A stretch of 64,000 nt of DNA from the NCBI GenBank assembly GCA_900016875.1, contig FCNR01000060.1, forward strand, positions 1 to 64,000, in the 5' to 3' direction. Origin of the DNA: Eubacteriaceae bacterium CHKCI004. GTDB taxonomy: Bacteria > Bacillota > Clostridia > Lachnospirales > Lachnospiraceae. Below are positions 11,987 to 34,740 of the stretch, piece by piece. The translations under genes and the position numbers were made by a program. A model generated the notes under the pieces. That model worked only from the letters and a program-made list of their open reading frames with translations, did no database searches and was not told the origin of the DNA. The first letter of the stretch is position 1. Every line of letters begins with the position of its first letter.

Positions 11987-12088
11987 TCATCGGCTGAGAT
12001 GTTTCTCAAGCCAGGTAACACCCTTATACAAAAATGCGGCCATCAGACAAAGGAGAAAGATGGATAGCATTACCCAATCCATTTTGAA
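11987..12088 (-). pseudogene. Displaced C-terminus of the split ABC permease gene
   Basis: Read on the minus strand from the AA/TT core at 12087-12088, the frame gives (TT)C AAA ATG GAT TGG and onward to TGA at 11987-11989: F-KMDWVMLSIFLLCLMAAFL followed by YKGVTWLEKHLSR. This is the last transmembrane helix and basic tail of an SsuC/TauC-type permease. The missing N-terminal part is the gene at 34702-35499, on the same strand, which stops exactly where this piece begins. An internal ATG (12082) has no ribosome site, so the piece is probably not translated. Confidence 0.85.
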
Positions 12089-12130
12089 GAGCTGAGACAA
12101 AATGGAAGGGAAAATGATAAAGTGGGTATT
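12063..12130 (+). other. attL: attL: left junction of the island
   Basis: Chromosome-derived permease sequence ends at the AA core (12087-12088). Island sequence starts at GAG 12089 and reads GAGCTGAGACAA, then AAAATGATAAA at 12111-12121. This inner arm is the inverted counterpart of the inner arm of attR at 34667-34708 (31 of the first 42 positions agree without gaps). See the attR entry and the island entry. Confidence 0.8.
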
Positions 12131-12313
12131 GCAGTAAATATTATTTATATTCTAAACGGTTATTTAAAGAAGAAATTGCAATAATTGATATTTTATAGGA
12201 AGAAGGGCATCCAATTAATGGTAAATGTGGTATAGTAAGCAGGAGGAATTTACATAAACAATACAAATCTCTTTATTATGCTTCGGCATTTGAAGAATTT
12301 CAGGAGGAACCCC

Positions 12314-13960
12314 ATGGGTGAAATAAGAGAACAAAAGAAGATTTCTGTCGGATTGTGGGTATTTCTACTGGTGATTTTCAGTTTCTTAGTTATTTCATGG
12401 AGATATAGTCCGACAGAGCATTTTTTCGATGAAGAAGGAGTATATGAACTTGAGACTGTCTGGCATGGAGAGAGACAGTCGGAGAGCGTGGACAGCCTGC
12501 CTGCTGTTTTTGCACATGATGAAAATGGAACGGCCACCGTGTATACGACGATTGATGAAAAATGGATGGAACAGGGGAATACTCTTTGTTTTCGGGCTTC
12601 TCAGGAAGCTGTGCGCGTCTGGATTGACGGTTCTTTGGTGCTGGAACAAGGGAATCTGGATATCGGTATTTTTGGACAGGCTCCTTCCAGCGGCTGGGTT
12701 ATGTTCCGGCTTCCCGCAGACAGCGGAGGGAAAGAACTGAGAATAGAATTGTCCTCTCCCTATGAAAATTATCAGGGATTATTGCATAAGGTTTATATAG
12801 GTACAAAAGCAGCTCTGTTATTTGCTGTTCTGCATACTTATGGACTTGGATTTGCAGTTGCTTGTCTGCTCATAGCCATCAGCGTGGTACTGTTTCTGTT
12901 CTATCTGTTATTTTTTGTCAGGAAGATTCCTGGCAGTCAATTTTTGCTTCTGGCAGTTTTTGGAATGCTGGCGGGAATATGGATGCTCGGAGAGAGCCAC
13001 ATGCTTCAGTTTTTCACGGGAAAGCTGGCTGCCTGGTATAATATGACGATGATTGTCATACATTTAATGCCGTTGCCGCTTCTCGGAATCATGGAGAAAT
13101 TGCCGGACTATTCATACGGACGCATATGCAGAGGCGGCAGATATTTTCTGATGGGATATTTGATAATGCTGATCGGACTGCAGGTGTCGGGAATCCGGGA
13201 TTTTATGCAGATGCTCAACATATCGCTGATGATTTTACTTTTGATTTGTGTAGGTAACCTGTTTCTGATTTACTGGGAGTTTTTTCACAATCACAATAAA
13301 AAAATTCTTCCTATGGTAGTGGCAATCACCATATTTTCTGTCTTTGCCTGTATGGAGCTGACGCATGGACTGATTAATATTCACAGAGCTTTAGGCTCAT
13401 ATCTGCAGGTGGGAGTGCTGGCGTTTTACGTTGTTCTTTGTGTATTCAGCATTCGTACTACTTTTGACCTTTATGTGCAGGGCTTGCAGTCAGAATATTA
13501 TAAAAAACTCTCCTATGTAGATCAGATGACAGGATGTATGAACCGGCGCGCCTTTACAGAGCGGGAGGATAGCTGGGTTCCCGGCGGAAACGATGTGCTT
13601 CTCATGATAGATCTGAATGATCTGAAGGAGATTAATGATGTGATGGGACACCATGTGGGAGATGTCTATATCAAAAAATGTTCTGACGCTATATTGGATA
13701 TTTTTGGGAAGCTGGGAGATTGTTACCGGATGGGCGGTGATGAATTTCTTTTCTGGGGAACCGGCGTCCCGGAAGAAAAGCTGGAGAAGCTGGAAGAGGA
13801 GCTTCGTTCCCGCGTACAGGAAGCGTGCAAAGATATTTCTCCTGTCTGCGGCGTAGCTTCCGGTCATGCGGCAGCCACCCCGGAAGATAGATCAGTTGAA
13901 GAAATTCTGAAACGGGCGGACGAGAAGATGTATGAAAATAAACGTTATGTGAAGATGTGA
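12314..13960 (+). CDS. Membrane diguanylate cyclase (7TMR-DISM-like sensor, GGDEF)
   Basis: 548 residues. One N-terminal membrane segment (about 10-28), an outside domain of about 130 residues with beta-rich character (VRVWIDGSLVLEQGNLD), seven or eight membrane segments (about 165-385), then a GGDEF domain with LSYVDQMTGCMNRRAF, the metal-binding DLNDLKEIND and an intact GGDEF in RMGGDEF. It makes cyclic di-GMP in response to an outside signal. The inhibitory RxxD site five residues upstream is KLGD, so product inhibition is probably absent. ATG 12314 was chosen for its AGGAGG six bases upstream; an ATG at 12278 lacks one. First gene inside the island. Confidence 0.9.
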   Translation: MGEIREQKKISVGLWVFLLVIFSFLVISWRYSPTEHFFDEEGVYELETVWHGERQSESVDSLPAVFAHDENGTATVYTTIDEKWMEQGNTLCFRASQEAVRVWIDGSLVLEQGNLDIGIFGQAPSSGWVMFRLPADSGGKELRIELSSPYENYQGLLHKVYIGTKAALLFAVLHTYGLGFAVACLLIAISVVLFLFYLLFFVRKIPGSQFLLLAVFGMLAGIWMLGESHMLQFFTGKLAAWYNMTMIVIHLMPLPLLGIMEKLPDYSYGRICRGGRYFLMGYLIMLIGLQVSGIRDFMQMLNISLMILLLICVGNLFLIYWEFFHNHNKKILPMVVAITIFSVFACMELTHGLINIHRALGSYLQVGVLAFYVVLCVFSIRTTFDLYVQGLQSEYYKKLSYVDQMTGCMNRRAFTEREDSWVPGGNDVLLMIDLNDLKEINDVMGHHVGDVYIKKCSDAILDIFGKLGDCYRMGGDEFLFWGTGVPEEKLEKLEEELRSRVQEACKDISPVCGVASGHAAATPEDRSVEEILKRADEKMYENKRYVKM

Positions 13961-14036
13961 GTAACCTGCCTTCTGTCACCCCGGACATTTTTCCGCATAC
14001 TAATAAGAAGAAAATAAAAACTCGTGGTGTATCTTT

Positions 14037-14216
14037 ATGAAGGAAGATTCCTCATATGCAGAAGAGGCTAAGAGCAGAAAATCATGCGGTACGCCGGCAA
14101 AAACGTCCGCGCTTTTATTTCTGGACGTCCTCTGTACATACTTTGAAGAGGAGCAGATTCTTGACAAAGAGCAGATAAAGCTTTTTCGAAAACAGTGGAT
14201 GGCGGAGGAAATGTAA
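14037..14216 (+). CDS. Small hypothetical protein, 59 residues
   Basis: ATG 14037 opens 59 codons ending at TAA 14214-14216. The C-terminal two thirds (LLFLDVLCTYFEEEQILDKE, then QIKLFRKQWMAEEM) is amphipathic helical and reads like a real small protein, but no clear ribosome site precedes it and I recognise no family. It lies between the diguanylate cyclase and arsR. A role as an accessory factor of the island, such as a recombination directionality factor, cannot be judged. Confidence 0.35.
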   Translation: MKEDSSYAEEAKSRKSCGTPAKTSALLFLDVLCTYFEEEQILDKEQIKLFRKQWMAEEM

Positions 14217-14296
14217 GGGGATGGCAGTGGAAAACGTTTATAGAGCAATTTTATATGAAATATACTGCACTGGAATATATTTCTCAGAAAAATTTA

Positions 14297-14350
14297 TTGA
14301 CATCTGCACATTTCTCAGGTACAATTCTCACATCAAGATAATTTGATGTG
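14297..14350 (+). promoter_or_regulatory. arsR promoter and ArsR operator 1
   Basis: TTGACA (14297-14302), a 17-bp spacer and TACAAT (14320-14325) make a strong promoter. Right after it, over the start point, lies CACATCAA-6-TTGATGTG (14329-14350), a perfect 8-bp inverted repeat of the type bound by ArsR/SmtB repressors. The same half sites with the same 6-bp gap recur before the permease gene. Confidence 0.85.
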
Positions 14351-14360
14351 AGGTGAGGCG

Positions 14361-14675
14361 ATGGATACGATTCATCAGGAACATGCAAAGATATTCAAGG
14401 CTCTCTGTGATGCAAAACGTCTTGCGATACTGGAGCAGCTGCGCAGCGGCGAGAAATGTGCCTGTAAGCTTCAGGAGCCTCTGGATCTGACACAATCAGG
14501 ATTGTCCTATCATATGAAGATACTCTGTGATTCCGGCATTGTGGTCAGCCGTCAGGAAGGGAAGTGGACGCATTATCGTCTGAGCACATCCGGCAGAGAT
14601 TATGCGTTGGAACTGCTGAAAAAGCTGACGACCCCGGATACAGTCTGGAATGAGTGTGACGATAAGGAGAAATGA
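14361..14675 (+). CDS. arsR: ArsR family metalloregulator
   Basis: A 104-residue winged-helix repressor. FKALCDAKRLAILEQLRSGEKCACKL carries the alpha3 metal site Cys33-x-Cys35, as in the ELCVCDL motif of arsenite-responsive ArsR; Cys16 could be a third ligand. The recognition helix is LTQSGLSYHMKIL. It releases DNA on binding As(III) or Sb(III). It sits over its own operator and is followed by a hairpin, then a second operator and the permease gene, so it should control both its own gene and the downstream operon. Typical length for the family. Confidence 0.92.
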   Translation: MDTIHQEHAKIFKALCDAKRLAILEQLRSGEKCACKLQEPLDLTQSGLSYHMKILCDSGIVVSRQEGKWTHYRLSTSGRDYALELLKKLTTPDTVWNECDDKEK

Positions 14676-14706
14676 ACGTCATCTGTAATCAGATGGCGTT
14701 TCCTTT
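14675..14706 (+). terminator. Hairpin between arsR and the permease gene
   Basis: AACGTCATCTG pairs with CAGATGGCGTT around the loop TAAT (11 bp with one G-U pair), followed by TCCTTT. It probably ends or attenuates the arsR transcript, which explains why the permease gene has its own operator. Confidence 0.65.
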
Positions 14707-14714
14707 AAACTAAT

Positions 14715-14734
14715 ACATCAAAAAAACTTGATGT
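14715..14734 (+). promoter_or_regulatory. ArsR operator 2, before the permease gene
   Basis: ACATCAA-6-TTGATGT, the same half sites and gap as operator 1 (14329-14350). This places the permease, thioredoxin-like and arsC genes under the same repressor. Confidence 0.8.
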
Positions 14735-14762
14735 GATATTCTTGAGAAAGTGAGGAAACTAC

Positions 14763-15764
14763 ATGGGAATATGGCAGTTTATTCAGGAACAGATTCTTGG
14801 CATGAAATGGCTGAATGAGGTGATTGGCTTTGGGCTTTCTGCCCTGGGTCTTGACGTGAGCGGACGGATTGGAGGCAGCATACAGTTTTTCTTGTATGAT
14901 GTGGTAAAAATCACCATACTACTCTGTTTTCTGATTTTTGTTATCTCTTATATTCAGAGCTTTTTCCCGCCGGAGCGAAGCAAACGGATTCTTGGGAGGT
15001 TTCACGGTATCCGGGCAAATATCATCTCTGCTTTGCTGGGAACGGTGACGCCTTTTTGCTCCTGTTCTTCGATTCCGCTGTTTATCGGTTTTACCAGTGC
15101 AGGGCTGCCATTAGGCGTAACATTTTCCTTTTTGATCTCCTCCCCTATGGTGGACCTGGGAAGCCTTGTACTGCTCATGAGCATTTTCGGAACGAAAGTG
15201 GCTCTTGTCTACGTCCTTCTCGGACTGGTGATCGCGGTGGCGGGAGGCATGATCATTGAGAAAATGCACATGGAAAAATATGTGGAAAGCTTTGTGTTGT
15301 CCGCCGGCAGCGTAGATATAGAATCTCCGGATCTAACGGTGCGGGAGCGTCTGATTTATGCCAAAGAGCAGATGGCAGAAACATTTAAAAAGGTATTTCC
15401 GTACATCCTTCTCGGCGTCGGTATAGGCGCGGTCATCCATAACTGGATACCGGAAAGCTGGGTGGAAACAGTATTGGGGAATCGTAATCCGTTCGGCGTG
15501 ATCATCGCAACCATCGTGGGAATTCCCATGTATGCAGACATTTTTGGGACGATTCCGGTGGCGGAAGCATTACTCGCCAAAGGAGCGCAGCTTGGTACGG
15601 TGCTGTCCTTTATGATGGCGGTCACCACCTTGTCACTGCCTTCAATGATCATGCTCCGAAAAGCGGTGAAGCCAAAGCTGTTGGGGCTGTTTATCGCCAT
15701 TTGTGCAGTTGGCATCATAGTTGTGGGATATCTGTTCAATGCAGTGCAATATATGTTGATATAG
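14763..15764 (+). CDS. Permease of the ArsP / SO_0444 (DUF318) family
   Basis: 333 residues with eight to ten membrane segments. The family signature TPFCSCSSIPLFIGFTSAG (two Cys in a membrane segment) and SFLISSPMVDLG are present, and a second repeat-like half has GIPMYADIFGTIPVAEALL. Relatives export trivalent organoarsenicals (ArsP) or other soft metals or metalloids. It takes the place of ArsB or Acr3, neither of which is here. It lies behind an ArsR operator and upstream of a thiol protein and ArsC, so metalloid export is likely. Whether inorganic arsenite is its substrate is open. Confidence 0.87.
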   Translation: MGIWQFIQEQILGMKWLNEVIGFGLSALGLDVSGRIGGSIQFFLYDVVKITILLCFLIFVISYIQSFFPPERSKRILGRFHGIRANIISALLGTVTPFCSCSSIPLFIGFTSAGLPLGVTFSFLISSPMVDLGSLVLLMSIFGTKVALVYVLLGLVIAVAGGMIIEKMHMEKYVESFVLSAGSVDIESPDLTVRERLIYAKEQMAETFKKVFPYILLGVGIGAVIHNWIPESWVETVLGNRNPFGVIIATIVGIPMYADIFGTIPVAEALLAKGAQLGTVLSFMMAVTTLSLPSMIMLRKAVKPKLLGLFIAICAVGIIVVGYLFNAVQYMLI

Positions 15765-15840
15765 CATGTGCTTAGATAAGATAAAATGTATCGGAAGATA
15801 TACTGATGAAGGTTGAATATTGAATCGGGAGGTTTTTACA

Positions 15841-16185
15841 ATGAAACTATTTGGAGGAAAAACAAAACAGAAAACCGGAAATTGCTGCGGCGATGGATGT
15901 ACGCCGGAAACCATGCAGCAGGCAGAGACAAAGAAAAACAGTTCCGGAATCAAGGTGCTTGGCGGCGGCTGTGCCAAATGCCATGAGCTGGAGAATGCAG
16001 TAAAAGAAGCATTGGCGGAACTGGAAATGGACACCTCTGTCGAAATGGTAACAGATTTTGCGCAGATTGCCGCATACGGAGTGATGACGACTCCTGCTCT
16101 GGTGATTGACGGCAAAGTCGTATCCTACGGCAAAGTATTGAAAAAAGAGGAAGCAAAAGACATAATACAGAAGGCGAGGGGCTGA
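15841..16185 (+). CDS. Redox-active thioredoxin-like protein (TM0996/MTH895 family) with Cys-rich N-terminus
   Basis: 114 residues. Residues about 36-112 are a small thioredoxin fold with the active-site pair Cys44-Ala-Lys-Cys47 (LGGGCAKCHELENAVKEAL) and the cis-proline strand MTTPALVIDGKV. The first 35 residues form a Lys-rich tail with Cys15, Cys16 and Cys20 that could bind metal. The start is ATG 15841 behind GGGAGG. Such proteins are often coded beside ArsP-type permeases; it may hand reducing equivalents to ArsC or deliver metalloid to the permease. This role is inference. Confidence 0.85.
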   Translation: MKLFGGKTKQKTGNCCGDGCTPETMQQAETKKNSSGIKVLGGGCAKCHELENAVKEALAELEMDTSVEMVTDFAQIAAYGVMTTPALVIDGKVVSYGKVLKKEEAKDIIQKARG

Positions 16186-16187
16186 AA

Positions 16188-16592
16188 ATGAAGAAAAAAA
16201 CAAAAGTCGCATTTATCTGCGTCCACAATTCCTGCCGAAGCCAGATTGCGGAGGCACTGGGAAAACATCTCGCGTCCGATGTATTTGAGAGCTATTCTGC
16301 GGGAACAGAGACGAAACCGCAAATCAACCAGGACGCAGTACGTCTTATGAAACAGCTCTATGACATTGACATGGAAAAAACGCAGCGCAGCAAGCTACTA
16401 TCGGAGATTCCTCCGGTCGACATAGTCATTACCATGGGCTGCAACGTGGAATGCCCGTTTCTTCCATGCAAACACAGAGAAGACTGGGGACTGGAAGACC
16501 CCACCGGAAGCAGCGACGAGGTATTTTTACAGGTGATTAAAACTATTGAGGGGAAGGTGTTGGAGTTGAAGGAGAGGGTTAGGAAAGGGTAG
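16188..16592 (+). CDS. arsC: Arsenate reductase, LMW-phosphatase type
   Basis: 134 residues. The P-loop CX5R is Cys11-VHNS-Cys-Arg17 and the following SQIAEAL matches thioredoxin-coupled ArsC. MGCNVECPFLPC holds Cys85, Cys89 and Cys94; the first two stand where the relay cysteines of this family lie. EDWGLEDPTG contains the catalytic acid. It reduces arsenate to arsenite, which the cell then exports. It begins two bases after the thioredoxin-like gene, so the two are translationally coupled and may act together. Normal length, intact. Confidence 0.92.
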   Translation: MKKKTKVAFICVHNSCRSQIAEALGKHLASDVFESYSAGTETKPQINQDAVRLMKQLYDIDMEKTQRSKLLSEIPPVDIVITMGCNVECPFLPCKHREDWGLEDPTGSSDEVFLQVIKTIEGKVLELKERVRKG

Positions 16593-16660
16593 AAAATAAC
16601 ATTTCTGCATATATTTTCATATATAAGAATGACTTCATATGTCCTGATGAGGTGAGAAAT

Positions 16661-18568
16661 ATGCCGGAAAATCAAAAACGCGCCGTTATTTACTGCCGTG
16701 TCAGCACGCAGGAACAGGCGCAGCGGGATGCACTGGCTGTGCAGGTAGAAGAAGCCCAAAATGCGGTAAAGAGCAATGAATGGGTGCTTGTTGACCAGTA
16801 TATCGAGATGGAGAGCGGGACAACGAAACATGGTCGCTCAGAATACATGCGGTTGCTTGACGACATAAAGGATAAGAATAAATTTGATATTATCGTCATC
16901 AAATCCCTGGATCGTCTGAATCGTTCGGCCAAAAACTGGTATCTGTTTGTGGAGGAGCTTGTCAACAATGACAAGCTCCTTTATATATACATGGACAGAG
17001 CGTTTTATAAAACCGACGATCGCCTTATCTCCGGAGTGAAGGCGATCCTGGCGGAACAATATTCCAGAGATTTGAGCAGCAAAATCAATAATGCGCACGA
17101 GTACCGGCAGAAAAACGGTACAACGGTTCTGATCAATAATAATACCTATGGATATGTCAAGAATCCGGATAAATCTGTGTCCATTCATCCTGAGGAAGCG
17201 AAAATGATACGAAAGATTTACCGGCTGGCGGCGCAAGGCTGCGGTTCCCGCACAATCAGTAAGATTTTATATCAGGACGGCATCCGGAACCGCAATGGCA
17301 ATCAGTTGGAGGAGTCCAGCATCCGGAGAATTATCAAAAATCCGCTCTTTAAAGGCGTCGTTGTCATGAATAAGCGGCACTTTGACTTTGAAAAAAAGAA
17401 AGAAATAAAGAATCCGGAATCGGAGTGGATTTATCATCAGGGGCTTGTACCTGCCATTGTGGAGAAGGAATTGTGGGAAAAGGCCAATAAGATGCTTAAA
17501 TTATCGGCAGCGCAGGTAAAGGGCGCCGGCTGGCAGAAAAAACACAGAGAACTCTATGATTTCTCCGGTAAGCTGATCTGTGGAGAGTGCGGAGCTCCCT
17601 ACTATAAAACCTTCCGCCGGCAATATGCCAATCCGGAGCATGTCATCGTGGAATGGAGATGTTCTTCTTATTTAAAGCACGGGAGGAAGAAGCAAGAGGT
17701 GGCAGAAGGGACAAATCAATCTAAAGAATGGGGGGCTGATGAACAGAAGCTGCGCCGCGGTCAGATTACCGGCTGTGACAATATCCATTTAAAGCAGGAA
17801 GGGCTGGAGCGCATGATGCGGGAGCTGTCCGGACAGTTGTTTGCATGGCAGGATGAAGAAAATATGATCCGTCGTATTATCAAAATACTTTCTGAGGTGC
17901 TTCTCACGGGAGAGACACATTTGAAAAAAGAGGAAGTGGAGAAGAATCTTATGGCTGTCAGGAACCGGAAGAGCCGGTTACTTGATCTGCTGCTTGATAA
18001 CACCATCTCAAAGCAGGGGTATAAAAGCAAGCAAAAAGAACTGGAGCAGGAAGAACAGCGTTGGACGGAGCGGCTGGAGAGGATGGATGTGGAGGAAGAA
18101 AAGATCCGGCAGACGAAGGAACGTCTGGTGGGAATTGAGCAAAAACTCCGGGCCGATGGCTGCGAAAAGATTCAGGCAGGGTTGCTCATGCAGGTCATGG
18201 ACCACATCCGGGTTTTTGAAGACCGGCTGGAGATAGAACTGAATCCGGTGGCTTTGCCTGGGGTGGCATCTGTCCATGGATGGATCATGCAGAAGCCGGG
18301 GGCCTTACAGAAAGATTACCTGCAGGAGTATTTCATTGAAGTTCCGACGGCCCGTTACTTCGCCGATACCCGCATTATCAAAAAGAAGAAAAAAGAAAGT
18401 ATCCCGGATATCCTCAGAAAAGAGCCGTTTCTCACCAACAAGGAATTGGCGAAACGCCTGGATGTTACATTTTCTACCCTGCGCCGCTGGCTTGCTGATT
18501 ACAAAAAGAAAGGGCAGATTTACTTTGATAAGACAGGAGGGAAAGGTCAGTGGAGAGTGAGGGAGTAA
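16661..18568 (+). CDS. Large serine recombinase (site-specific integrase)
   Basis: 635 residues. The resolvase domain begins AVIYCRVSTQEQ with nucleophile Ser15, then SLDRLNRSAKNW. The recombinase domain has YGYVKNPDKSVSIHPEEAKMIRKIY and the usual SIRRIIKNPLFKG. A zinc ribbon follows (CGECG, later C and GCDN), then a long coiled coil (about 410-515). The last 60 residues (FLTNKELAKRLDVTFSTLRRWLADYKKKG) form an extra winged helix not found in most members. ATG 16661 follows GAGGTGAG; GTG 16652 is an alternative. It is the only recombinase in the island and is therefore the probable integrase for attL/attR. Confidence 0.93.
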   Translation: MPENQKRAVIYCRVSTQEQAQRDALAVQVEEAQNAVKSNEWVLVDQYIEMESGTTKHGRSEYMRLLDDIKDKNKFDIIVIKSLDRLNRSAKNWYLFVEELVNNDKLLYIYMDRAFYKTDDRLISGVKAILAEQYSRDLSSKINNAHEYRQKNGTTVLINNNTYGYVKNPDKSVSIHPEEAKMIRKIYRLAAQGCGSRTISKILYQDGIRNRNGNQLEESSIRRIIKNPLFKGVVVMNKRHFDFEKKKEIKNPESEWIYHQGLVPAIVEKELWEKANKMLKLSAAQVKGAGWQKKHRELYDFSGKLICGECGAPYYKTFRRQYANPEHVIVEWRCSSYLKHGRKKQEVAEGTNQSKEWGADEQKLRRGQITGCDNIHLKQEGLERMMRELSGQLFAWQDEENMIRRIIKILSEVLLTGETHLKKEEVEKNLMAVRNRKSRLLDLLLDNTISKQGYKSKQKELEQEEQRWTERLERMDVEEEKIRQTKERLVGIEQKLRADGCEKIQAGLLMQVMDHIRVFEDRLEIELNPVALPGVASVHGWIMQKPGALQKDYLQEYFIEVPTARYFADTRIIKKKKKESIPDILRKEPFLTNKELAKRLDVTFSTLRRWLADYKKKGQIYFDKTGGKGQWRVRE

Positions 18569-18609
18569 ATGTCTTTTAGAAGAAATCATAATAAATACAT
18601 TTTTGCCCT

Positions 18610-18649
18610 TTGTACTTTTGAGCATAATTATGTTATAATAATGTACAAA
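18610..18649 (+). promoter_or_regulatory. Promoter and palindrome of the Phd/RelE-type operon
   Basis: TTGTAC (18610-18615), 18 bp, TATAAT (18634-18639). The half sites TTTGTAC (18609-18615) and GTACAAA (18643-18649) form an inverted repeat that brackets the promoter, a likely operator for the antitoxin and the toxin-antitoxin complex. Confidence 0.65.
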
Positions 18650-18662
18650 AAGGAGGTGCAGT

Positions 18663-18926
18663 ATGCCACAGATTAGACCGATTACAGATCTTCGTAACAC
18701 TAACGAGATATCAGATATTTGTCATGCCCGGCGTGAGCCCGTATTTATTACGAAAAATGGATATGGTGATTTGGTGGTGATGAGTATTGAAACCTATGAG
18801 GAAATGGTGGAAAATACAGCGATAGATACCGCAATTTCAGAAGCAGAGGCCGAATTCGAACAAGACGGGAAGCTTTATGATGCAAAGGAAGCGTTGAAGT
18901 CTTTAAGGAGGAAGCATTTTGGATAA
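18663..18926 (+). CDS. Phd/YefM family antitoxin
   Basis: 87 residues. The N-terminal Phd/YefM DNA-binding fold is clear (IRPITDLRNTNEISDICHARREPVFITKNGYGDLVVMSIETYE), and the acidic C-terminus is the part that wraps the toxin. It neutralises the RelE-like toxin coded next and represses the operon. AAGGAGG precedes ATG 18663. The last eight bases overlap the toxin gene. Confidence 0.92.
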   Translation: MPQIRPITDLRNTNEISDICHARREPVFITKNGYGDLVVMSIETYEEMVENTAIDTAISEAEAEFEQDGKLYDAKEALKSLRRKHFG

Positions 18927-19423: not shown

Positions 19424-19438
19424 TATTGAGGTGATGCA

Positions 19439-28300: not shown

Positions 28301-29923
28301 TTTTTATTTACCAGGACAGATGCTGCCTTCAACGGTGAACTGGGCATGGAGACAACGACAGATCTGTGCATTTCTTCTGTCCTCCCTCAGAGTAAACTGG
28401 AGATGGGAGCGATAGAATATACCGAGGAAGATATGATGCCGGGAGATACTGCAGTGCTGACGGTTCCGGTGACCAATGATGGTTTGGAAAGCACAGGTAC
28501 AAATGACAAAGTGCAGATTGTATGTGGAACAGAAATGATCGGAGAAGCTGTATTGAATCAGAAAATGGAACCGGGACAGACGGAACAGGTAGAAATTACT
28601 GCTGATATGCCTGAGAACTTACCAGAAAATGCAGAGTTAACGGTGCAGACTATTTCTGAGGCAGGTGGAAGCGATGATACACAGCAGATCACAGCGGGGG
28701 GTGCGGAACTGAACCTGACTGTAGAACAGCCGGACATGGATACATTTTCTGTGATTGTTTCCAATACGAGCGGTTATGATACCACAGCTTCCTTATCAAT
28801 AAAAAATGAAACAGGTGAGCCTATCAAAACAGAAGAGTTGGATAAAATTGCCGCTGGCGAGCAGGCAACCCGGGACTTTACAAGAGAAGAACTGGCAGCT
28901 TTGGGCAGTGATACCCTTGAGATTGAGGTTACGAATGAAAAACAGGATTTGCTGCCGTTTAACAATACCGCTTCCGTTTATGTGGGAGAAGACACTTTGA
29001 AAACTCTGGATCATCTGGTGGCTTCGAAGACGAAAGTAGAGTATAAAAAAGGTGAGGTTTTGAATCTGAATGATCTGCAAATAAGAGCCGTGTATACAGA
29101 TGGAAGCGAAGCGATCGTTACGGATTACACCACAAATGTATCGGATATCGATATGACGGTTCCGGGAGAAAAGGAGCTGGTCATCACTTACGAGGAGGTT
29201 TACCGGACAAGAAAGGTAAATATGCCGATTACCGTGATGAATGTTTCCGAGGATAAGCCGGAAGAACCAGACACTCCGGGAAGCGGGCCTCAGACAGAAC
29301 CGGATAAGGGAAATAATCAGACCACTCCGGGATCTTCTTCGGGACAAAATACTGGACAAAATATTGTGCAGACTGACAAAACGTACAGACCAGTAAAGAT
29401 TAGTGCCATGAGTCTTTCTGGTCCTTCCAATAAAATCGCCGTAGGCAAACGCATCAAACTGACTGCCAGCATCTTCCCGGTCAATGCATCCGACCAGCGT
29501 CTGATCTGGTCTTCCAGCAATCCGAAGGTGGCAACTGTCAATCAATTCGGCGTAGTGACCATGAAGAAAAAGACTGGCGGCAAATCTGTCATTATTACTG
29601 CAAGAGCTGCCGATGGCAGCGGAACCACAGCCACTTTCCGTATCAAATCTATGAAAGGCGTTGTAAAGAAGGTCACCATAGCAGGAGCTAAGAAGCGGAC
29701 AGTGAAAGCGGGACAAAAACTGAAGCTGAAAGCGAAAGTCACGGCCACCAAAGGTGCCAACAAGAAACTGATCTGGACCAGCAGCAATACAAAATATGCC
29801 ACAGTATCTGAATCCGGTAAGGTGAAGACAAAGAAACTGGGAAAAGGCAAAAAGGTAAAAATTACTGCTATGGCAACGGATGGAAGCAACAAGAAGATGA
29901 CAGTAACCATCAAACTAAAATAA
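25325..29923 (+). CDS. Giant secreted surface protein with BspA-type leucine-rich repeats, Big_3 and two Big_2 domains
   Basis: 1532 residues. A signal peptide (about residues 9-35, LISCMMAMIVVLTMVLSVPG) ends near MEAADTE. Residues 70-300 hold at least six LRR_5/BspA repeats (FGSCINLRSVELPDSVTVIE and FAFDNCGSLNSVKMPKNLEK type). Then comes a long beta-rich middle (about 330-1010), CARDB-like stretches (about 1020-1210), a Big_3 domain (VEYKKGEVLNLNDLQIRAVY), a Pro-Gly linker (about 1310-1360), and two Big_2 domains (IWSSSNPKVATVNQFGVVT; IWTSSNTKYATVSESGKVK) ending in a Lys-rich tail. No LPXTG motif; the basic tail may bind the wall. Probably an adhesin. It is the largest gene of the island. 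Confidence 0.88.
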   Translation: MDEMMWEKRLISCMMAMIVVLTMVLSVPGLKMEAADTEITYAVTGGNITFDMSTGTITDCDESVTEAVIPDTIGGVLVEEVGIRAFGSCINLRSVELPDSVTVIEAFAFDNCGSLNSVKMPKNLEKIESWAFWGCGNLSSIEIPDKTRKIGEEAFQNCAGLDSIEIPASVISIGNSAFGYCSGLRSIKVDKNNTAYSSEDGVLFDKEKTTLLCYPIGKKQTVYEIPEGVTKIEDTAFCNCISLRGIGIPESVTGIDEYAFHMCDSLTDVYYGGSKEAWQNITIKDYNVALETAAIHYGSTCPDDVPLPPLPSGNTTVTGDNTEENDMELTVGGDVEFEVPDNVPLIGGGEVSLDFGEIPVQFEREGNEFRLGVGVDSLEDLDENGWATFKKFVETQKESYRKGCKALLSSKHGIASMGMKVKPDISFFAYAEGTITEDGIQSFGGKSFIEIKAKAEQKWQTVVVVVPVVVKFSGEAGVAVTTSLGLDLANSSVYSSGEVELTLPKLKLSGGVGVAYIADVSVYGSGKNVLTAEMEAPGNGAPKGKFTGTLSGELGVSATALCFSYEKALLEDDWEYYSSENAKARSKSAPYSLPDEGQWEIKRTDSSAWNGKMSSQKKSRAKAANADGAEATSEAAVQVLQSDIYASAKPTLLQTDSGKKVLIYTADLSGRTTGNHTAVVYSVYDENTATWSDPVQVDDDETADFDAVAAVNGENVYIAWSDAKRTFTETEDEPQTENSMKEMASACEITVARLNLEGTAGEKVAIYQLTNNDYADLKPAVTVNNHVPYIAWYENQNNDILEGTGTNIVHVAALEGDAFVPRASQEVNAPVQSVAIGSMRNNIMAAWECSSGTEENLETTISVMDMQGTVTEVASRSQNQKPSFARINEQNVLLWYAEDADGAASLQYADVPGGEIHTYLEDAVITSDYNVIEGNDCELVVCASNKPEEYTDGSNLYAYVMRNGQISEPVTLTNVKGYAANPSGIWNETDFEFLFTRTDAAFNGELGMETTTDLCISSVLPQSKLEMGAIEYTEEDMMPGDTAVLTVPVTNDGLESTGTNDKVQIVCGTEMIGEAVLNQKMEPGQTEQVEITADMPENLPENAELTVQTISEAGGSDDTQQITAGGAELNLTVEQPDMDTFSVIVSNTSGYDTTASLSIKNETGEPIKTEELDKIAAGEQATRDFTREELAALGSDTLEIEVTNEKQDLLPFNNTASVYVGEDTLKTLDHLVASKTKVEYKKGEVLNLNDLQIRAVYTDGSEAIVTDYTTNVSDIDMTVPGEKELVITYEEVYRTRKVNMPITVMNVSEDKPEEPDTPGSGPQTEPDKGNNQTTPGSSSGQNTGQNIVQTDKTYRPVKISAMSLSGPSNKIAVGKRIKLTASIFPVNASDQRLIWSSSNPKVATVNQFGVVTMKKKTGGKSVIITARAADGSGTTATFRIKSMKGVVKKVTIAGAKKRTVKAGQKLKLKAKVTATKGANKKLIWTSSNTKYATVSESGKVKTKKLGKGKKVKITAMATDGSNKKMTVTIKLK

Positions 29924-29959
29924 ATAAGTGGGAACAGAAACTGATTTGATTGATAATTA

Positions 29960-29999
29960 AAAAGATGGCGCTTGATATATTTGTATCGGGCGCCGTCTT
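29960..29999 (+). terminator. Hairpin terminator after the surface protein gene
   Basis: AAGATGGCGC pairs with GCGCCGTCTT around an 18-base loop, followed by TC and a short T-rich stretch. Confidence 0.65.
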
Positions 30000-30081
30000 T
30001 CAGTTTCCTCGATAAAATGCAGATAGAATTAAGAATTTGCTGGATTTTTTGCAGAAAAAGATAAACTATATAGGAGACCAA

Positions 30082-30666
30082 ATGAATACCCCAACTCTCA
30101 AAACAGAAAGACTGATTTTAAGAAAATTTGAAAAAAGTGATTTGAAAGCAATCTATGAGATTTACAGAGACGAAGAGGCCAATACATTTCTGCCATGGTT
30201 TCCGATGAAAACGATGGAAGAAGCCAGGATGTTTTATGAAAAGCATCTGTTCAGACAGTATGAGAAGGAAAGCGCCTATAATTATGCGGTATGTCTAAAA
30301 GAAGATAATGTGCCCGTCGGCTATGTCAATGTCGGTATGGAGGACAGTTTTGACTTTGGGTATGGGCTGCGCAGAGAGTTCTGGCATCATGGTATCATCA
30401 CGGAAGCCTGCGAAGCAGTGATCGGGCAGCTTAAAAAGGACGGAATCCCGTATATTACCGCCACGCATGATGTAAAGAATCCACGAAGCGGTAATGTGAT
30501 GAAGAAACTGGGGATGAAATACCAATATTCCTATGAGGAATTGTGGCTGCCAAAAAATGTACAGGTCACTTTTCGAATGTATCAATTAAATCTTGATGGA
30601 CAAAAAGACAGAGTTTATTGGAAATATTGGGAGGAATCCACTGTACATTTTGTGGAAGAAGAATAA
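30082..30666 (+). CDS. GNAT family acetyltransferase, RimJ/RimL-like
   Basis: 194 residues. LKTERLILRKFEKSDLKAIYEIYRDEEANTFLPW is the hallmark start of RimJ/RimL-type enzymes. FGYGLRREFWHHGIITEACEAVIGQL is the acetyl-CoA site, and HDVKNPRSGNVMKKLGMKYQYSYEE the typical end. Targets could be a protein N-terminus or a small molecule. ATG 30082 was chosen because TAGGAG precedes it and the family begins there. The gene is single, between the surface protein and the AbrB gene. Confidence 0.9.
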   Translation: MNTPTLKTERLILRKFEKSDLKAIYEIYRDEEANTFLPWFPMKTMEEARMFYEKHLFRQYEKESAYNYAVCLKEDNVPVGYVNVGMEDSFDFGYGLRREFWHHGIITEACEAVIGQLKKDGIPYITATHDVKNPRSGNVMKKLGMKYQYSYEELWLPKNVQVTFRMYQLNLDGQKDRVYWKYWEESTVHFVEEE

Positions 30667-30749
30667 AGCGGGCAGAGATATTTCTGAGAGGTAGTTGATC
30701 TCTTCAATTCTTTTAAAATCTTTCAGAAAAAACAGCGGTAGAGGCAAAA

Positions 30750-31025
30750 TCAAAAATTTTCATCCTCATTTCTTAATTCTTCTACAAGTGTCATAATATC
30801 ATCTTCTGAGGTTAGTCCGGTACGTTCTGCTTCCCCGGCCATGTCCTGCTGGAGTATTTGCATCGCATAAACGGCAGAATTAACAATGCGAACATTACTT
30901 CCTTCAACGATAAAAGTCACTCTGTCGCCACTTGACACGCCAAGAACTTCACGAACATCTTTTGGGATAGTAATTTGACCTTTTGACATAACCTTAGCGT
31001 TGTCTACAAATGTGTTTGTTACCAT
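30750..31025 (-). CDS. AbrB/SpoVT family transcription factor (antitoxin-like)
   Basis: 91 residues. The swapped-hairpin domain VDNAKVMSKGQITIPKDVREVLGVSSGDRVTFIVEGSNVRIVN is complete. The C-terminal 40 residues are acidic and helical (MAGEAERTGLTSEDDIMTLV), like the toxin-binding tail of MazE/AbrB-type antitoxins, yet no toxin gene lies next to it. Its own promoter carries a 24-bp palindrome just after the -10 box, pointing to autorepression. Ribosome site AAAGGTGG. Confidence 0.9.
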   Translation of the reverse strand: MVTNTFVDNAKVMSKGQITIPKDVREVLGVSSGDRVTFIVEGSNVRIVNSAVYAMQILQQDMAGEAERTGLTSEDDIMTLVEELRNEDENF

Positions 31026-31046
31026 GATGTTATACCACCTTTCTAA

Positions 31047-31098
31047 AAAAGTAGGGAAATCCCTACTTTTATTATATGCAGGAAAGGAAAAAAATCAA
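31047..31098 (-). promoter_or_regulatory. Promoter and perfect palindrome of the AbrB-type gene
   Basis: On the minus strand TTGATT (31098-31093), 16 bp, TATAAT (31076-31071). Directly downstream AAAAGTAGGGA-AA-TCCCTACTTTT (31047-31070) is a perfect 11-bp inverted repeat over the transcription start. It is a likely autorepression operator; alternatively it forms a 5' hairpin in the mRNA. Confidence 0.75.
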
Positions 31099-31169
31099 TA
31101 AAAATTCTATAACATTGTGTTACAATTTCTAATAAAGTCAAAATTGAAAATATAGGAGGGAACTGCGGT

Positions 31170-31549
31170 GTGGAAAGATACTCTTTACCCATTGGTATCT
31201 CCAGCTTTGATAAGATAAGAAAAAATAGCTACTATTATATAGATAAAACGTGCTGACCGAAATGCTGTCAAATATTTTGTTTGATACGATCAGTTACCAT
31301 GACTATCAGGAAAGTTTTTATCATGCCTTTCTGGCCGGCCTGTTTTCCGGTGCAGGCTATATTGTGGAATCCAATTATGAACATGGGCTGGGGCGTTCCG
31401 ATGTGGTGATCAAGTATCGAAAACACCGCCGGGCAATCTTGTTTGAAGTCAAACATGCCGCCGAGGAAACTATGCTGGAGAGAAACAGGGAAGTAATCAA
31501 CATACTTCCCTGTTTCTTTTTCCCGATTTCTTTTTCCATCCAGGAATAA
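31170..31549 (+). pseudogene. AAA-ATPase / PD-(D/E)XK (DUF1703-like) gene with large internal deletion
   Basis: After AGGAGGG, GTG 31170 opens RYSLPIGISSFDKIRKNSYY followed by YIDKTC and a stop at 31254. That is the exact start of the AAA-ATPase-like/PDDEXK_9 proteins (LPIGIxSFxxIRxxxYYYVDKT). From 31250, one frame over, the end of the same family appears: TISYHDYQESFYHAFLAGLF, then SGAGYIVESNYEHGLGRSDV and AILFEVKHA (nuclease core). Some 400 middle codons with the ATPase are missing. After about 31480 the frame runs into a terminator, so the last residues are lost too. Confidence 0.85.
31482..31521. terminator. Bidirectional terminator at the end of the nuclease remnant and yitT
   Basis: GAAACAGGGAAGT (31482-31494) pairs with ACTTCCCTGTTTC (31504-31516), 13 bp without mismatch, followed by TTTTT. 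The yitT reading frame ends in its loop (31497) and the nuclease remnant enters it from the other side. Confidence 0.85.
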
Positions 31550-32249
31550 TTCTTCTTATCCGGTGGCATTTTATATTTGGAGGAGAAATTGTATTATGTT
31601 TTAATAATTTTGGCCGGCCCGGTAGTCGAAATTCCTGGATACGGTCAATCAGGAATGAAGAAATAATAACTGTAAAAACAGAAAAAACCAATTTGGAAAA
31701 ATGGATGTATGTGAGTGAAAGTCCCAATACTACAAAATCTGTAAACAGATAAGCTCGTGATAACCGGCAGTGTGTGATCCTGGAAATTGTGAGAGCTAAT
31801 GCATCGTCGCCGCCGCTCGAACCTCCTTGCCGGATAATGATTCCAACGCCAAGCCCGACAAAGATACCTCCGCTTATGGCGGCCAGTAAAGGGGAAGCGG
31901 ACAGATCAGGAAGCATGGGTGGAAACAGTTCCCATAAAGAATAAAATGCCGATACACTAAAGGTGGAAAGAATAGACATAATAATGAATTTTCCGCCCAG
32001 ATATTTAAAAGCCAGCAGGTAGCAGATGATATCAAGCACCGGCGTAATATAGGCTGGTGAAATGCCGAGCCAATGTTCTGTCAGAAGCATGAGTCCGATG
32101 ATGCCTCCCTCTGTGATATCGGCACGCTGATGGATATTGTGTATTCCAAAAGAACAGATAGCTGCGCCGAGAATAATAAACAGCAGTTTTTTCCAGGGGA
32201 TTCTTCGAATGATCGCCGTGGTTATTGTTGGTTGTTTTTTATCAGACAT
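31497..32249 (-). CDS. YitT family membrane protein lacking the C-terminal DUF2179 domain
   Basis: 250 residues. Residues 20-195 are the YitT membrane domain (five segments) with FGIHNIHQRADITEGGIIGL and the glycine-rich RQGGSSGGDDALALTISR motif. Relatives carry a soluble DUF2179 domain after it; here the sequence after LIDRIQE becomes a short basic tail (PGRPKLLKHNTISPPNIKCH) unlike DUF2179 and ends inside a terminator loop, so it looks truncated. Start ATG 32249 follows AAGGAG. Function of the family is unknown. Confidence 0.82.
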   Translation of the reverse strand: MSDKKQPTITTAIIRRIPWKKLLFIILGAAICSFGIHNIHQRADITEGGIIGLMLLTEHWLGISPAYITPVLDIICYLLAFKYLGGKFIIMSILSTFSVSAFYSLWELFPPMLPDLSASPLLAAISGGIFVGLGVGIIIRQGGSSGGDDALALTISRITHCRLSRAYLFTDFVVLGLSLTYIHFSKLVFSVFTVIISSFLIDRIQEFRLPGRPKLLKHNTISPPNIKCHRIRRIIPGWKKKSGKRNREVC

Positions 32250-32476
32250 ATATATCCACTCCTTGTTTTTTTGTAATCTGGAAACAGGATAAAGCATATA
32301 GTAACTATAATGTCAATAGAAAAAAGAGAAAATTTTTTTGACCGGTAAAATCTGATAATAATATTTGAAATAAGTATTGACCTTATACTAACTATATCGT
32401 TTATGCTATTTACAGAAGGTAATTGATAATCTTCAGAAACAGATTTATTTGTGTTAGAAAGGCAGGCGATTCATTT

Positions 32477-33514
32477 ATGATTAATCTTGAAAAAATTCGT
32501 GTGGTACAGTATGGATGTGGAAAAATGAGCAAGTACATTTTGCGCTATCTGTTTGAAAAGGGCGCGGAAATCGTGGGAGCAATTGATACAAATCCTGAGA
32601 TTGTGGGTATGGACGTCGGCGATTATGCAGGATTGGGTGTGAAGCTGAATGTTCCGATTCGGTCGGATGCTGACGCAGTGCTTGATGAATGTGATGCGGA
32701 TATTGCCGTTGTGACATTGTTCAGTTTTATGAATGATGTGCTGCCGCATTTTGAACGCTGCCTCTCCCGTGGCATTAATGTGGTCACCACCTGCGAGGAA
32801 GCAATCTATCCGTGGACGACCGCGGCCTCCATTACCAATCGTCTGGATAAGCTGGCTAAGGAAAATAACTGCACTATCACCGGCACTGGGATGCAGGACA
32901 TTTACTGGATCAATATGATCGGAGCTGTGGCGGGCGGCGTACACAGCATCAAAAAAATAGAAGGAGCCGTCAGCTATAATGTGGAAGATTACGGTCTTGC
33001 GCTGGCTAAAGCCCACGGGGTAGGTCTGACACCGGAAGAGTTTGAGGCGCAGCTGGCTCATCCGGAAACGGTGGAGCCGGCCTATGTCTGGAATTCCAAT
33101 GAGGCTCTGGCAAATAAACTGGGACTGACTATCAAATCCATCAGCCAGAAATGTGTACCGTATTTTTATGATACCGACCTTTGGTGTGAGACCACCGGCG
33201 AGACCATCAAAAAAGGCAATTGTATCGGTATGAGCGCTGTGGTCACCACGGAAACGTTTCAGGGAATTACGATTGAAACCCAGTGCATCGGCAAAGTTTA
33301 CGGGCCGGACGATGGAGACATGTGCGATTGGAAGATTATCGGAGAGCCGGATACAGAATTTCACGTGGTAAAACCTGCGACGCCGGAACACACCTGCGCC
33401 ACACTGGTGAATCGGATTCCTACTATTTTAAATGCACCGGCGGGATATATCACAGCGGAGAAACTTGAGGATGTGGAGTATCTTACATGGCCGATGCACA
33501 TGTATCTGGAATAA
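32477..33514 (+). CDS. 2,4-diaminopentanoate dehydrogenase-like / dihydrodipicolinate-reductase-fold oxidoreductase
   Basis: 345 residues. A Rossmann fold opens the protein ([31 protein letters not shown], Gly-x-Gly-x-x variant) and the remainder ([33 protein letters not shown]) matches the family of Ord, which acts on 2,4-diaminopentanoate in oxidative ornithine fermentation. The genes that normally accompany Ord (OrtAB, OraSE) are absent, so another amino or carboxylic substrate is possible. ATG 32477 was chosen over 32423 by the family start; GGCAGG lies upstream. Confidence 0.8.
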
Positions 33515-33534
33515 GAGAAAAATCCGTAACAAAA

Positions 33535-33586
33535 AGCAGACAGGAAGCATATTTTTCAGGCTTCCTGCCTGTTCTTTTTTTCGGGC
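33535..33586. terminator. Hairpin terminator between convergent genes
   Basis: ACAGGAAGC pairs with GCTTCCTG-CTGT around about eleven bases, followed by TCTTTTTTT. It ends the dehydrogenase transcript and lies in front of the end of the convergent MerR gene. Confidence 0.75.
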
Positions 33587-33644
33587 CGTCTTTGCGGAGT
33601 AGAACTATTTGCGAATCCTGTTACCTTTGCAGAGTGGCGTTAAT

Positions 33645-34475
33645 TTATGCATCAGGCTGTCGGATATAAAACATAATTTTGGTGATGTATTCGTTTTCAT
33701 CATAAGTCGTTATATAGTCGTTAATACAGAATTCATAAGAATCCGATACGATCTGCAGGTCATTCGCCTGACAGTAATCAAGAATCTTCTGATAAGAACG
33801 TCCGATGGATAAATAATCCCCAACGTGATAGATACTGACACATTTTCCGGCGGGAAGATATTTGATGTTGCAGGTCTGCTCCGTTGCTTCTATGGGAAGA
33901 AAAGCAAAGGTGGATTCGGTGAAACGTCCTTCCATGATATGCTGGTAAGGGACAACCACACCACATTGAAAAAAGATGGGTAGATTTTTCTGAAAAGAAT
34001 CGGCGAAACACTGCTTCGTTGCGATGCTGATCTCCCGCATACTGTAAGGAGGCTCCACTGCGTGAAGTAAAATGTACTGCGCCTTTACATTTTCCAGGAT
34101 AACTGTGTTTTCTTTTTCACGGTATATTTTTGCATTTTCCATCTGCGTGCAGCGATGCTGCAGCCGGCTGCGAATCAGACGAAGTTCCTCGATCTGACGG
34201 TCGATGGCGGTCAACTGTTTTCCAAGCGCAGACAGGCTGCTGTCGATGGTATAACTCTGCATATGCTCCCGTATTTCTTTCAGGGAGAACCCGCTTTTCT
34301 TCATAATCAGGATGGTGTCCAGATAGTCAATCTGTTTAGAGCTGTAATAACGATAACCGTTATTCGGGTCCACATAGGCAGGCTTGAACAAACCGATTTT
34401 ATCGTAAAAAATCAAAGTTTGCTTTGATATATTCTGATATTTTGACAACTCGCCGATTGAAAATAGATTATCCAT
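33645..34475 (-). CDS. MerR family regulator with GyrI-like (BmrR-type) effector domain
   Basis: 276 residues. The N-terminus FSIGELSKYQNISKQTLIFYDKIGLFKPAYVDPNNGYRYYSSKQIDYL is MerR; a coiled coil follows (about 80-118), then a GyrI/BmrR-type ligand domain (VEPPYSMREISIATKQCFAD, then YLPAGKCVSIYHVGDYLSIG and YEFCIND). Such proteins bind cationic drugs. It is the last gene before attR and is presumably autoregulated through the dyad at 34497-34517. AAGGAGG precedes the start. No target gene lies beside it. Confidence 0.9.
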   Translation of the reverse strand: MDNLFSIGELSKYQNISKQTLIFYDKIGLFKPAYVDPNNGYRYYSSKQIDYLDTILIMKKSGFSLKEIREHMQSYTIDSSLSALGKQLTAIDRQIEELRLIRSRLQHRCTQMENAKIYREKENTVILENVKAQYILLHAVEPPYSMREISIATKQCFADSFQKNLPIFFQCGVVVPYQHIMEGRFTESTFAFLPIEATEQTCNIKYLPAGKCVSIYHVGDYLSIGRSYQKILDYCQANDLQIVSDSYEFCINDYITTYDENEYITKIMFYIRQPDA

Positions 34476-34496
34476 AATACCTCCTTAGTATGTGAA

Positions 34497-34517
34497 CGAT
34501 GGAATGTACTTCTATCG
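34497..34517 (-). promoter_or_regulatory. Dyad operator of the BmrR-type gene
   Basis: CGAT-GAA-TGTAC-TTC-ATCG arms form an inverted repeat (one mismatch pair inside) just upstream of the ribosome site. A GTGACG box sits on the far side in minus-strand orientation, 19 bp from TTCACA, which would fit a MerR-type spacer although the -10 is poor. Confidence 0.5.
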
Positions 34518-34666
34518 TCACACAGTTTTGCGAAGCAATAAGTTAGCCTTTATAATGAGATCATGGTGCTGGTAACAGCACCCTGGCCTGTTGAAGCATT
34601 TAGCCCGCCAGTATATGTTTTTTCATTATATCAGATGGTTATGAGGGGTTCAAATAAAACTCTACT

Positions 34667-34740
34667 AATGCTCATTTTATCATTTCCCTCCCTAAATTGT
34701 CTCACCTCAACACCTGCGACCCATAAATAATCAGATACCC
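34667..34740 (+). other. attR: attR: right junction of the island
   Basis: Island sequence ends with TTGTCTCACCTC (34697-34708), the core AA is 34709-34710, and permease codons resume at 34711. The inner arm is the inverse of the one at attL: GAGGTGAGACAA here against GAGCTGAGACAA there, and AAATGATAAA in both at the same distance from the core. The shared identity of attL and attR in direct orientation is limited to the AA core, as is normal for serine integrases. Confidence 0.8.

What the first reader, a model, noticed from the sequence alone, without database searches (positions are those of the whole stretch)
12063..34740. A 22.6-kb serine-recombinase island splits an ABC permease gene and can be excised on paper to the base
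Seen: the permease ORF at 34702-35499 stops at YGSQVLR, and 22.6 kb away on the same strand and in correct order lies the missing tail KMDWVMLSIFLL. Joining at the AA dinucleotide present at 12087-12088 and 34709-34710 gives in-frame YGSQ-VF-KMDWVML, the canonical continuation for SsuC/TauC permeases. This sets the island at 12089-34710. Inference: the recombinase at 16661 inserted it. I know of no description of this target, but could not search.
Basis: partly seen in the sequence, partly recalled or inferred. Interest (0 to 1): 0.9.

Follow-up and report, generated by a model that had tools for sequence, protein, structure and literature searches.

The report
Mobile island docked in transporter gene
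A 22.6-kb block of foreign genes sits at one exact spot inside a transporter gene of a gut bacterium, and related recombinase genes occur with many different cargoes at that same spot in dozens of related species, so this gene looks like a recurrent docking site for mobile DNA.

Summary
An ABC permease gene (SsuC/TauC-like) is split by 22,620 bp (12089-34708) bounded by 42-nt inverted arms and a shared AA (TT in gene sense). Eight close genus mates have the uncut gene, continuing as predicted across the join. In sister species G009 the DNA is 998/1000 identical inside the tail-side edge and 81/106 outside. It is one case of a Lachnospiraceae-wide pattern. With the window's recombinase as query, 19 of 25 family genomes that have both genes have the permease cut, each at this codon. 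With a recombinase profile, 69 of the best 80 loci show one or both permease halves nearby. TT stands at the joint in 85 of 85 N-side and 55 of 55 tail-side junctions; arms of both sides give one motif (r=0.90). Elements span about 2.3 to 66 kb with varied cargo. Synonymous distances show transfer and replacement. Best reading: a site-specific large-serine-recombinase island family whose target I found undescribed. Excision was not seen; the vehicle between cells is unknown.

The parts
12089..34708 (.). Island (22,620 bp) inserted in the permease gene
   Evidence: Inverted arms and cores; uncut relatives; drop of identity to G009 at the tail-side core
12087..12088 (.). AA core (TT in permease sense), tail-side junction (attL-like)
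   Evidence: TT in 55 of 55 tail-side junctions
34709..34710 (.). AA core, N-side junction (attR-like)
   Evidence: TT in 85 of 85 N-side junctions
12089..12130 (+). Left inverted arm (half of the presumed attP)
   Evidence: pair I1
34667..34708 (-). Right inverted arm
   Evidence: pair I1
34702..35499 (-). N-terminal part of the ABC permease, ends ...YGSQV|LR
   Evidence: BPD_transp_1
11987..12088 (-). C-terminal tail of the permease, 33 residues and stop
35483..36262 (-). ABC ATPase gene directly upstream on the same strand, presumed partner
16661..18568 (+). Large serine recombinase, 635 aa from ATG (638 from GTG at 16652): Resolvase, Recombinase, Zn_ribbon_recom
12278..13960 (+). Cargo: GGDEF protein
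14361..16592 (+). Cargo: arsenic-type cluster: ArsR-type regulator, ArsP_1 permease, ArsE-like thioredoxin, arsenate-reductase-like LMWPc
   Evidence: ArsE family over cut-off; arsenate reductase models below theirs
18919..19221 (+). Cargo: ParE-type toxin-like protein
19439..21218 (+). Cargo: TetR-type regulator and two proteins without a Pfam hit
21782..25118 (.). Cargo: HxlR(-), FMN reductase(+), Uma2(-), PD-(D/E)XK transposase-like(+, below cut-off)
25325..29923 (+). Cargo: 1532-aa LRR_5/Big protein, in a stretch shared with G009 at 95.6%
30037..34475 (.). Cargo of the right end, mostly not shared with G009 (31181-31479 is): GNAT(+), MazE-like(-), YitT(-), DAP dehydrogenase-like(+), MerR(-)

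Best explanation
The interval is a site-specific integrative island of a large serine recombinase family whose attB is a conserved codon stretch (YGSQV|F-K) near the 3' end of a Lachnospiraceae ABC permease gene. Likely steps: the recombinase binds its attP, an inverted repeat around TT in the circular island, and the permease site, cuts both at TT and rejoins them, leaving attL and attR as the two junctions (inferred from the junctions). Insertion takes the last 33 residues off the permease and adds a few foreign ones, so the transporter is probably off while the island is in (inferred). Exact reversal would restore the gene (shown on paper only). The family moves between species and is replaced at the site (shown by sequence distances). 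Cargo is exchanged: G000 and G009 share the left 17.8 kb but not most of the right end.
For: Arms end at the cores. Uncut gene in eight close genus mates. The cut state is scattered on the genus permease tree, 5 changes for 13 genomes (well-supported branches alone force 2). Identity to G009: island 998/1000, tail 81/106, permease 525/600; 97.1% over 13.2 kb of island against 82-85% in the chromosome. Window recombinase as query: 19 of 25 family genomes cut, all 19 at this codon. TT in 85/85 and 55/55 junctions. 72 distinct N-side and 50 distinct tail-side arms give one motif, r=0.90 in register, -0.14 to 0.22 when slid by 1-3. Recombinases in cut genomes cluster on the tree: 3 changes against 7.3 in shuffles, 0 of 500 as low. 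Transfer: G000/G009 recombinase dS 0.18 against permease 0.66; L187/L189 0.26 against 0.86. Replacement: L199/L228 permease dS 0.70, recombinases 51% identical.
Against: No circle junction or empty site in the window's assembly, so present activity is unproven. In 6 of 25 family genomes with a recombinase relative the permease is uncut (G169, G311, G189, G320, G111, and G367 with a second, cut 3' end); their recombinase hits are E 2e-95 or weaker. Two of these lineages (G111, G169) nest among permease-cutting ones on the tree, which left out G311, G367 and G010. A1 was built from 16 recombinases of cut genomes and one of unknown state, and only the best 80 of 124 hits were returned, so the 69 of 80 is not an unbiased rate. 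11 of 80 loci showed neither half, two of them on stretches over 21 kb (L222, L231). The window's recombinase lies 16 kb from the N-side junction, whereas in 23 of 61 loci it is within 200 bp. The window's own arms score low on the family motif (10.3 and 1.7 bits; family median 16.6). On the N side TT is also what the native Phe codon has, so there only the point of divergence informs.
Confidence: 0.93

Rival explanations
1. A gene-interrupting regulatory element, like skin in sigK (recalled): the recombinase excises the island under a given condition to switch the transporter on.
For: Both recognisable halves stay open: 0 of 66 N halves with a stop, 43 of 43 tails end at 31-36 aa; median dN/dS 0.051 in 15 pairs of cut genes. 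Some elements are little more than a recombinase (about 2.3 kb in G165, there with a short 293-aa recombinase, and 2.5 kb in G392). The best-scoring NCBIfam model is XisF of the fdxN element. In G367 an uncut permease sits beside a second 3' end holding a decayed element.
Against: Patchy presence, transfer and replacement mean that the insertions may simply be young, which also explains the low dN/dS. Decayed halves would have been missed, since both were found by similarity. Cargo is diverse with no evident tie to the transporter. XisF cut-off not reached (101 of 375 bits).
Confidence: 0.12
2. A decayed ICE, IME or prophage: recombinase and site are relics of a larger self-transferring element that lost its transfer genes.
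For: The two permease halves of G101 are about 66 kb apart. G104's contig has ORFs whose first residues look like MobC and a relaxase (by eye). The recombinase matches phage integrase family phrog_95 (273 bits) and the LRR/Big protein matches one head and several tail models, through its Ig-like repeats.
Against: No relaxase, T4SS or packaging family among the 20 window ORFs scanned, nor among the 25 commonest Pfam families of 115 cargo ORFs of 33 elements (61 further families not shown). Those 33 elements are 3-11 kb and still exactly bounded.
Confidence: 0.2
3. A composite: two elements in tandem or nested, the ars-recombinase part being one and the right end another.
For: The recombinase is 16 kb from the N-side end and the right end differs from G009's. 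The best single-arm match in the island (15.1 bits) starts at 29925, after an AA and four bases past the end of the G009-like stretch.
Against: That score is not beyond chance (27 of 200 shuffles reach it) and no arm faces it; none of the eight best two-arm sites of the window lies inside the island other than its right end. The motif fits this subclade poorly, so the test is weak. The two outer arms match each other.
Confidence: 0.18
4. Assembly artefact or chance likeness of the two ends.
For: None found.
Against: The same junction recurs in dozens of assemblies, among them a 3.79-Mb contig with both halves (G151) and a complete genome (AP025573.1, tail side).
Confidence: 0.01

Closest known systems
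Site-specific large serine recombinases with one target gene (Durrant et al., PMC10083194; passages seen)
   Same: Diverse recombinases converge on one conserved site in a coding sequence; that paper reports it for a prolyl isomerase (33 LSRs) and for a Mg-chelatase/protease gene.
   Different: 'ABC transporter' and 'permease' occur 0 times in its main text; its supplementary tables could not be read, so this target may be in its database.
Serine-integrase ICEs in conserved dispensable genes such as rumA and hsdM (PMC7563491; passages seen)
   Same: Internal sites of conserved genes.
   Different: Other targets; those are conjugative, and no transfer gene was found here.
IME_Rho_tet of gut Bacillota (PMC12904643; passages seen)
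   Same: Serine recombinase, terminal inverted repeats, gut Clostridia.
   Different: Most often in MAFF2 ORFs; carries a relaxase and tet genes.
SCC of staphylococci (recalled)
   Same: Works alike: cassette with serine recombinase and varied cargo, one chromosomal dock, no transfer genes.
   Different: Ccr models far below cut-off (CcrB 80 of 900 bits); the dock is an ABC permease that gets truncated, not rlmH.
fdxN element and XisF
   Same: Best-scoring NCBIfam recombinase model; precise gene interruption (recalled).
   Different: 101 of 375 bits; no developmental excision shown.
Phage serine integrases, phrog_95
   Same: Recombinase residues 4-526 match, 273 bits.
   Different: Best near-full-length match in phage records is 27% identical; no permease half in 7 viral contigs with relatives.

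Membership tests
Large serine recombinase | Resolvase + Recombinase + zinc ribbon domains | tested here: met
   PF00239, PF07508, PF13408 over cut-off
Large serine recombinase | Conserved catalytic-domain residues | tested here: met
   Y11, R13, S15, D84, R85, R88 invariant in 17 aligned sequences; their roles recalled
Large serine recombinase | attP x attB recombination | not testable with these tools
   No assay; no circle junction in the assembly
TndX/TnpX-type multi-target transposase | DUF4368 and many targets | tested here: not met
   No DUF4368 hit at E<=0.001; permease halves at 69 of 80 loci
SCC | Ccr recombinase | tested here: not met
   CcrB 80 of 900, CcrC 63 of 900 bits
SCC | Insertion in rlmH | tested here: not met
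   ABC permease instead
fdxN/XisF element | XisF equivalog | tested here: not met
   101 of 375 bits
ICE or IME | Relaxase, with or without T4SS | tested here: not met
   None among the 20 window ORFs I picked for Pfam; smaller and overlapping ORFs not scanned
Prophage | Structural or packaging genes | tested here: not met
   20 ORFs against PHROGs: only the LRR/Big protein hits head and tail models, through its Ig-like end; no portal, terminase or capsid family

The most novel reading that the evidence does not exclude
One permease codon stretch serves a whole bacterial family as a shared chromosomal dock for exchangeable cassettes, and because both gene halves are kept intact and rejoin in frame, occupancy works as a reversible transporter switch as well as a gene-exchange port. 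The element is then both cargo carrier and regulator, in dozens of gut species.
Probability: 0.13. Interest if true: 0.82.

Novelty: new member of a known kind. Interest (0 to 1): 0.6.

Why it matters
It turns one odd split gene into a rule: a permease site used again and again by a diverse recombinase clade across Lachnospiraceae, with predicted natural attP/attB pairs by the dozen. That gives candidate integration tools for gut bacteria that are hard to engineer, explains a class of apparently broken ABC permeases in their genomes, and offers a clean system to test why serine recombinases choose conserved protein-coding sites and whether such interruptions are reversible.

Tried and rejected
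Second attP inside the island: none among the eight best two-arm sites except the island's own right end; the best single arm (29925) is at chance level. RNA element near the permease: no Rfam match at gathering score in the window. tRNA target: none in the window. Phage or plasmid carriers: best near-full-length matches 27% (phages) and 32% over 83% (plasmids). Viral contigs: 7 relatives, none with a permease half. Circle junction or empty site in the own assembly: none. Defence cargo in the window: of seven window proteins scanned, one (Uma2) matches candidate family PDC-S03. G160 has an uncut second permease copy, but it differs from the cut one (56% and 64% identity to the query), so I did not read it as a mixed state. 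The share of cut genes among the 207 permease genomes could not be counted, as its row list was truncated.

Papers: PMC10083194, PMC12904643 and PMC7563491 were seen in passages by term; others (for example PMC5025042 on skin, PMC10747680) only in search listings. That the target is unreported rests, and on 0 uses of 'permease' in the main texts of PMC10083194 and PMC12904643; supplements were not open to me.

Full report
CHECK. The window (G000 contig C18) carries an ABC permease ORF on the minus strand, 34702-35499, ending YGSQVLR, and its missing tail at 11987-12088. Both edges share the dinucleotide AA (TT in gene sense). Joining there gives one open frame. The interval 12089-34708, 22,620 bp, begins and ends in 42-nt imperfect inverted arms that stop exactly at the cores, the longest of 195 inverted pairs found in the region.

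RELATIVES IN THE GENUS. 14 of 24 genomes hold the permease at E<=1e-50; one search repeats this with an uncut query. Eight close copies are uncut and read YGSQVFKMDWVML (G022: YSSQVFKMDWVML), five are cut after YGSQV, and G012 is a distant copy that matches to its end. The recombinase, at E<=1e-40, is in four of 24 genomes, G000, G009, G001 and G019, all cut; by hand, four of four falling among five cut of 14 has a chance of 5/1001. The fifth, G010, has next to its junction a 352-aa recombinase end, 36% identical to a family member. G001 likewise has one beside its junction. On the permease tree the cut state needs five changes among 13 genomes and is not clustered; support of most branches is low, and the well-supported ones alone force two changes.

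THE CLIFF. G009 is Eubacterium sp. An11 by the length and match of its contig (13,842 bases). Beside the tail-side core the island is 998/1000 identical to the window's and the host tail beyond it 81/106; on the other side the permease is 525/600. Over 13.2 kb the island is 97.1% and over the next 4.8 kb 95.6% identical, against 82-85% in the chromosome beside it. Most of the right end differs. G009's two contigs were taken as one element because they meet at the same window position; this is inference.

THE FAMILY. In 397 genomes of the bacterial family drawn by the tool, 29 (the window included) have the recombinase at E<=1e-60. Of the other 28, 25 have the permease: 19 cut (G153, G419, G209, G300, G104, G319, G328, G430, G392, G152, G158, G309, G222, G241, G151, G165, G248, G160, G101), each at this codon, and six uncut (G169, G367, G311, G189, G320, G111); three have no hit (G094, G116, G388). 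In 17 of the 19 recombinase and cut permease are on one contig. A scan of the 84,980-species collection with the recombinase alignment A1 returned the best 80 of 124 loci. A1 holds 17 sequences, 16 of them from cut genomes, so this set leans to the permease clade. Within reach the N half was found in 61, one or both halves in 69, neither in 11; of these 11, L163 has a short N end after all.

JUNCTIONS. Over both sets, duplicates included, TT stands at the joint in 85 of 85 N-side (72 distinct arms) and 55 of 55 tail-side junctions (50 distinct arms). The position was fixed by the YGSQV codons or the tail's Phe, and that divergence starts there was read by eye; on the N side TT belongs to the native Phe codon. 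The two groups of arms, one reversed, give one motif, tAGcTG.G..g.catacTGAtA.aAt, with r=0.90 in register and -0.14 to 0.22 when slid by up to three bases. This is what the two halves of a serine-recombinase attP should look like. The window's own subclade (G000, G009, G001, G019) has the outer TGATA-like block 9-10 bases further out, read by eye, and the window's arms score low on the motif.

SIZE AND CARGO. 33 elements with both junctions inside 10-kb flanks measure 3.1-11.1 kb, median 6.1 kb, a range capped by the flanks. Others: about 2.3 kb (G165) and 2.5 kb (G392), 22.6 kb here, and about 66 kb between the halves in G101 (Anaeromicropila populeti). Of 115 cargo ORFs from those 33, after dropping ten recombinase ORFs from the 125 listed, the commonest Pfam domains are PDDEXK_9 (9) and AAA-ATPase_like (7), then response regulators (5) (25 of 86 families shown). 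The window carries an arsenic-type cluster, a GGDEF protein, a large LRR/Big protein and regulators. PHROGs finds the integrase family phrog_95 for the recombinase and head/tail Ig models for the LRR/Big protein, but no packaging gene in 20 ORFs.

MOVEMENT AND SELECTION. In 25 pairs that I chose, synonymous distances show transfer (G000/G009 recombinase 0.18 against permease 0.66; L187/L189 0.26 against 0.86; L172/L208 0.51 against 0.96) and replacement (L199/L228, L220/L228: near hosts, recombinases 51-52% identical); other pairs are level or saturated (L182/L175: 1.45 against 1.34). Over 63 loci recombinase and permease distances still correlate, rho 0.56, 0 of 999 permutations as high, so exchange is mostly among related hosts. 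None of 66 N halves has a stop, and 43 of 43 tails end after 31-36 residues; both were found by similarity, so badly decayed ones would be missed. Median dN/dS is 0.051 in 15 cut pairs and 0.088 in four uncut pairs, two of which are the same two genomes. This fits young or reversible insertions and cannot separate them.

MECHANISM. Shown: exact site, arms, core, uncut site, association with one recombinase clade (3 changes on a tree of 31 recombinases against 7.3 shuffled), transfer and turnover. Inferred: that this recombinase does the joining, that the truncated permease is inactive, that excision restores it, that a directionality factor exists. Unknown: the vehicle between cells, as no transfer gene was found here.

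KNOWN KINDS. The recombinase is a large serine recombinase by domains but not XisF, CcrB, CcrC or a DUF4368 type. The closest published pattern is the single-target LSRs of PMC10083194 (passages); related patterns are in PMC7563491 and PMC12904643. I found no report of this target in the eight searches named, with the limit that supplements and most subscription papers were closed.

Noticed in passing
L147 7150-14500 (G367): An uncut permease is followed by a second partial 3' end that holds a decayed element; the two tails are 95% identical over 126 bp. Suggests that gene function was kept or regained beside a dead element.
   Followed up: partly
L123 (G241): The permease tail lies inverted relative to the N half, about 1.4 kb from it, so the region seems to have been inverted after insertion.
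   Followed up: partly
L140 604-5105 (G101, Anaeromicropila populeti): Besides the roughly 66-kb insertion at the dock, the permease is cut a second time near residue 136 of the N-half query by about 3.8 kb of other DNA.
   Followed up: no
window 12089-12130 and 34667-34708; G009, G001, G019 junctions: Outer TGATA-like block of the arms lies 9-10 bases further from the core than in the rest of the family, about one helical turn (by eye).
   Followed up: partly
window 29921-29954: Homology to G009 ends at 29921, and the best single arm-like match of the island starts at 29925 after an AA; score at chance level (27 of 200 shuffles).
   Followed up: partly
G001 contigs C190 and C205 (L028, L029): Two overlapping but different recombinase copies (by eye); the one on C190 follows ORFs that look like carB and a sigma/anti-sigma pair.
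   Followed up: no
L030 1714-2925 (G019) and L033 8794-10026 (G005): A transporter-like gene, alike by eye, lies between recombinase and permease in G019 and directly downstream of the uncut permease in G005, hinting at captured or rearranged host DNA.
   Followed up: no
L222 and L233: A recombinase relative on a 95-kb Anaerocolumna contig and on a 99-kb IMG/VR contig that gave identical chance matches, with no permease half in reach; possibly a phage-like relative with another target.
   Followed up: partly
one of the 33 elements in alignment A2: One cargo ORF matches the Antibiotic_NAT family (aminoglycoside acetyltransferase type); which element was not traced.
   Followed up: no
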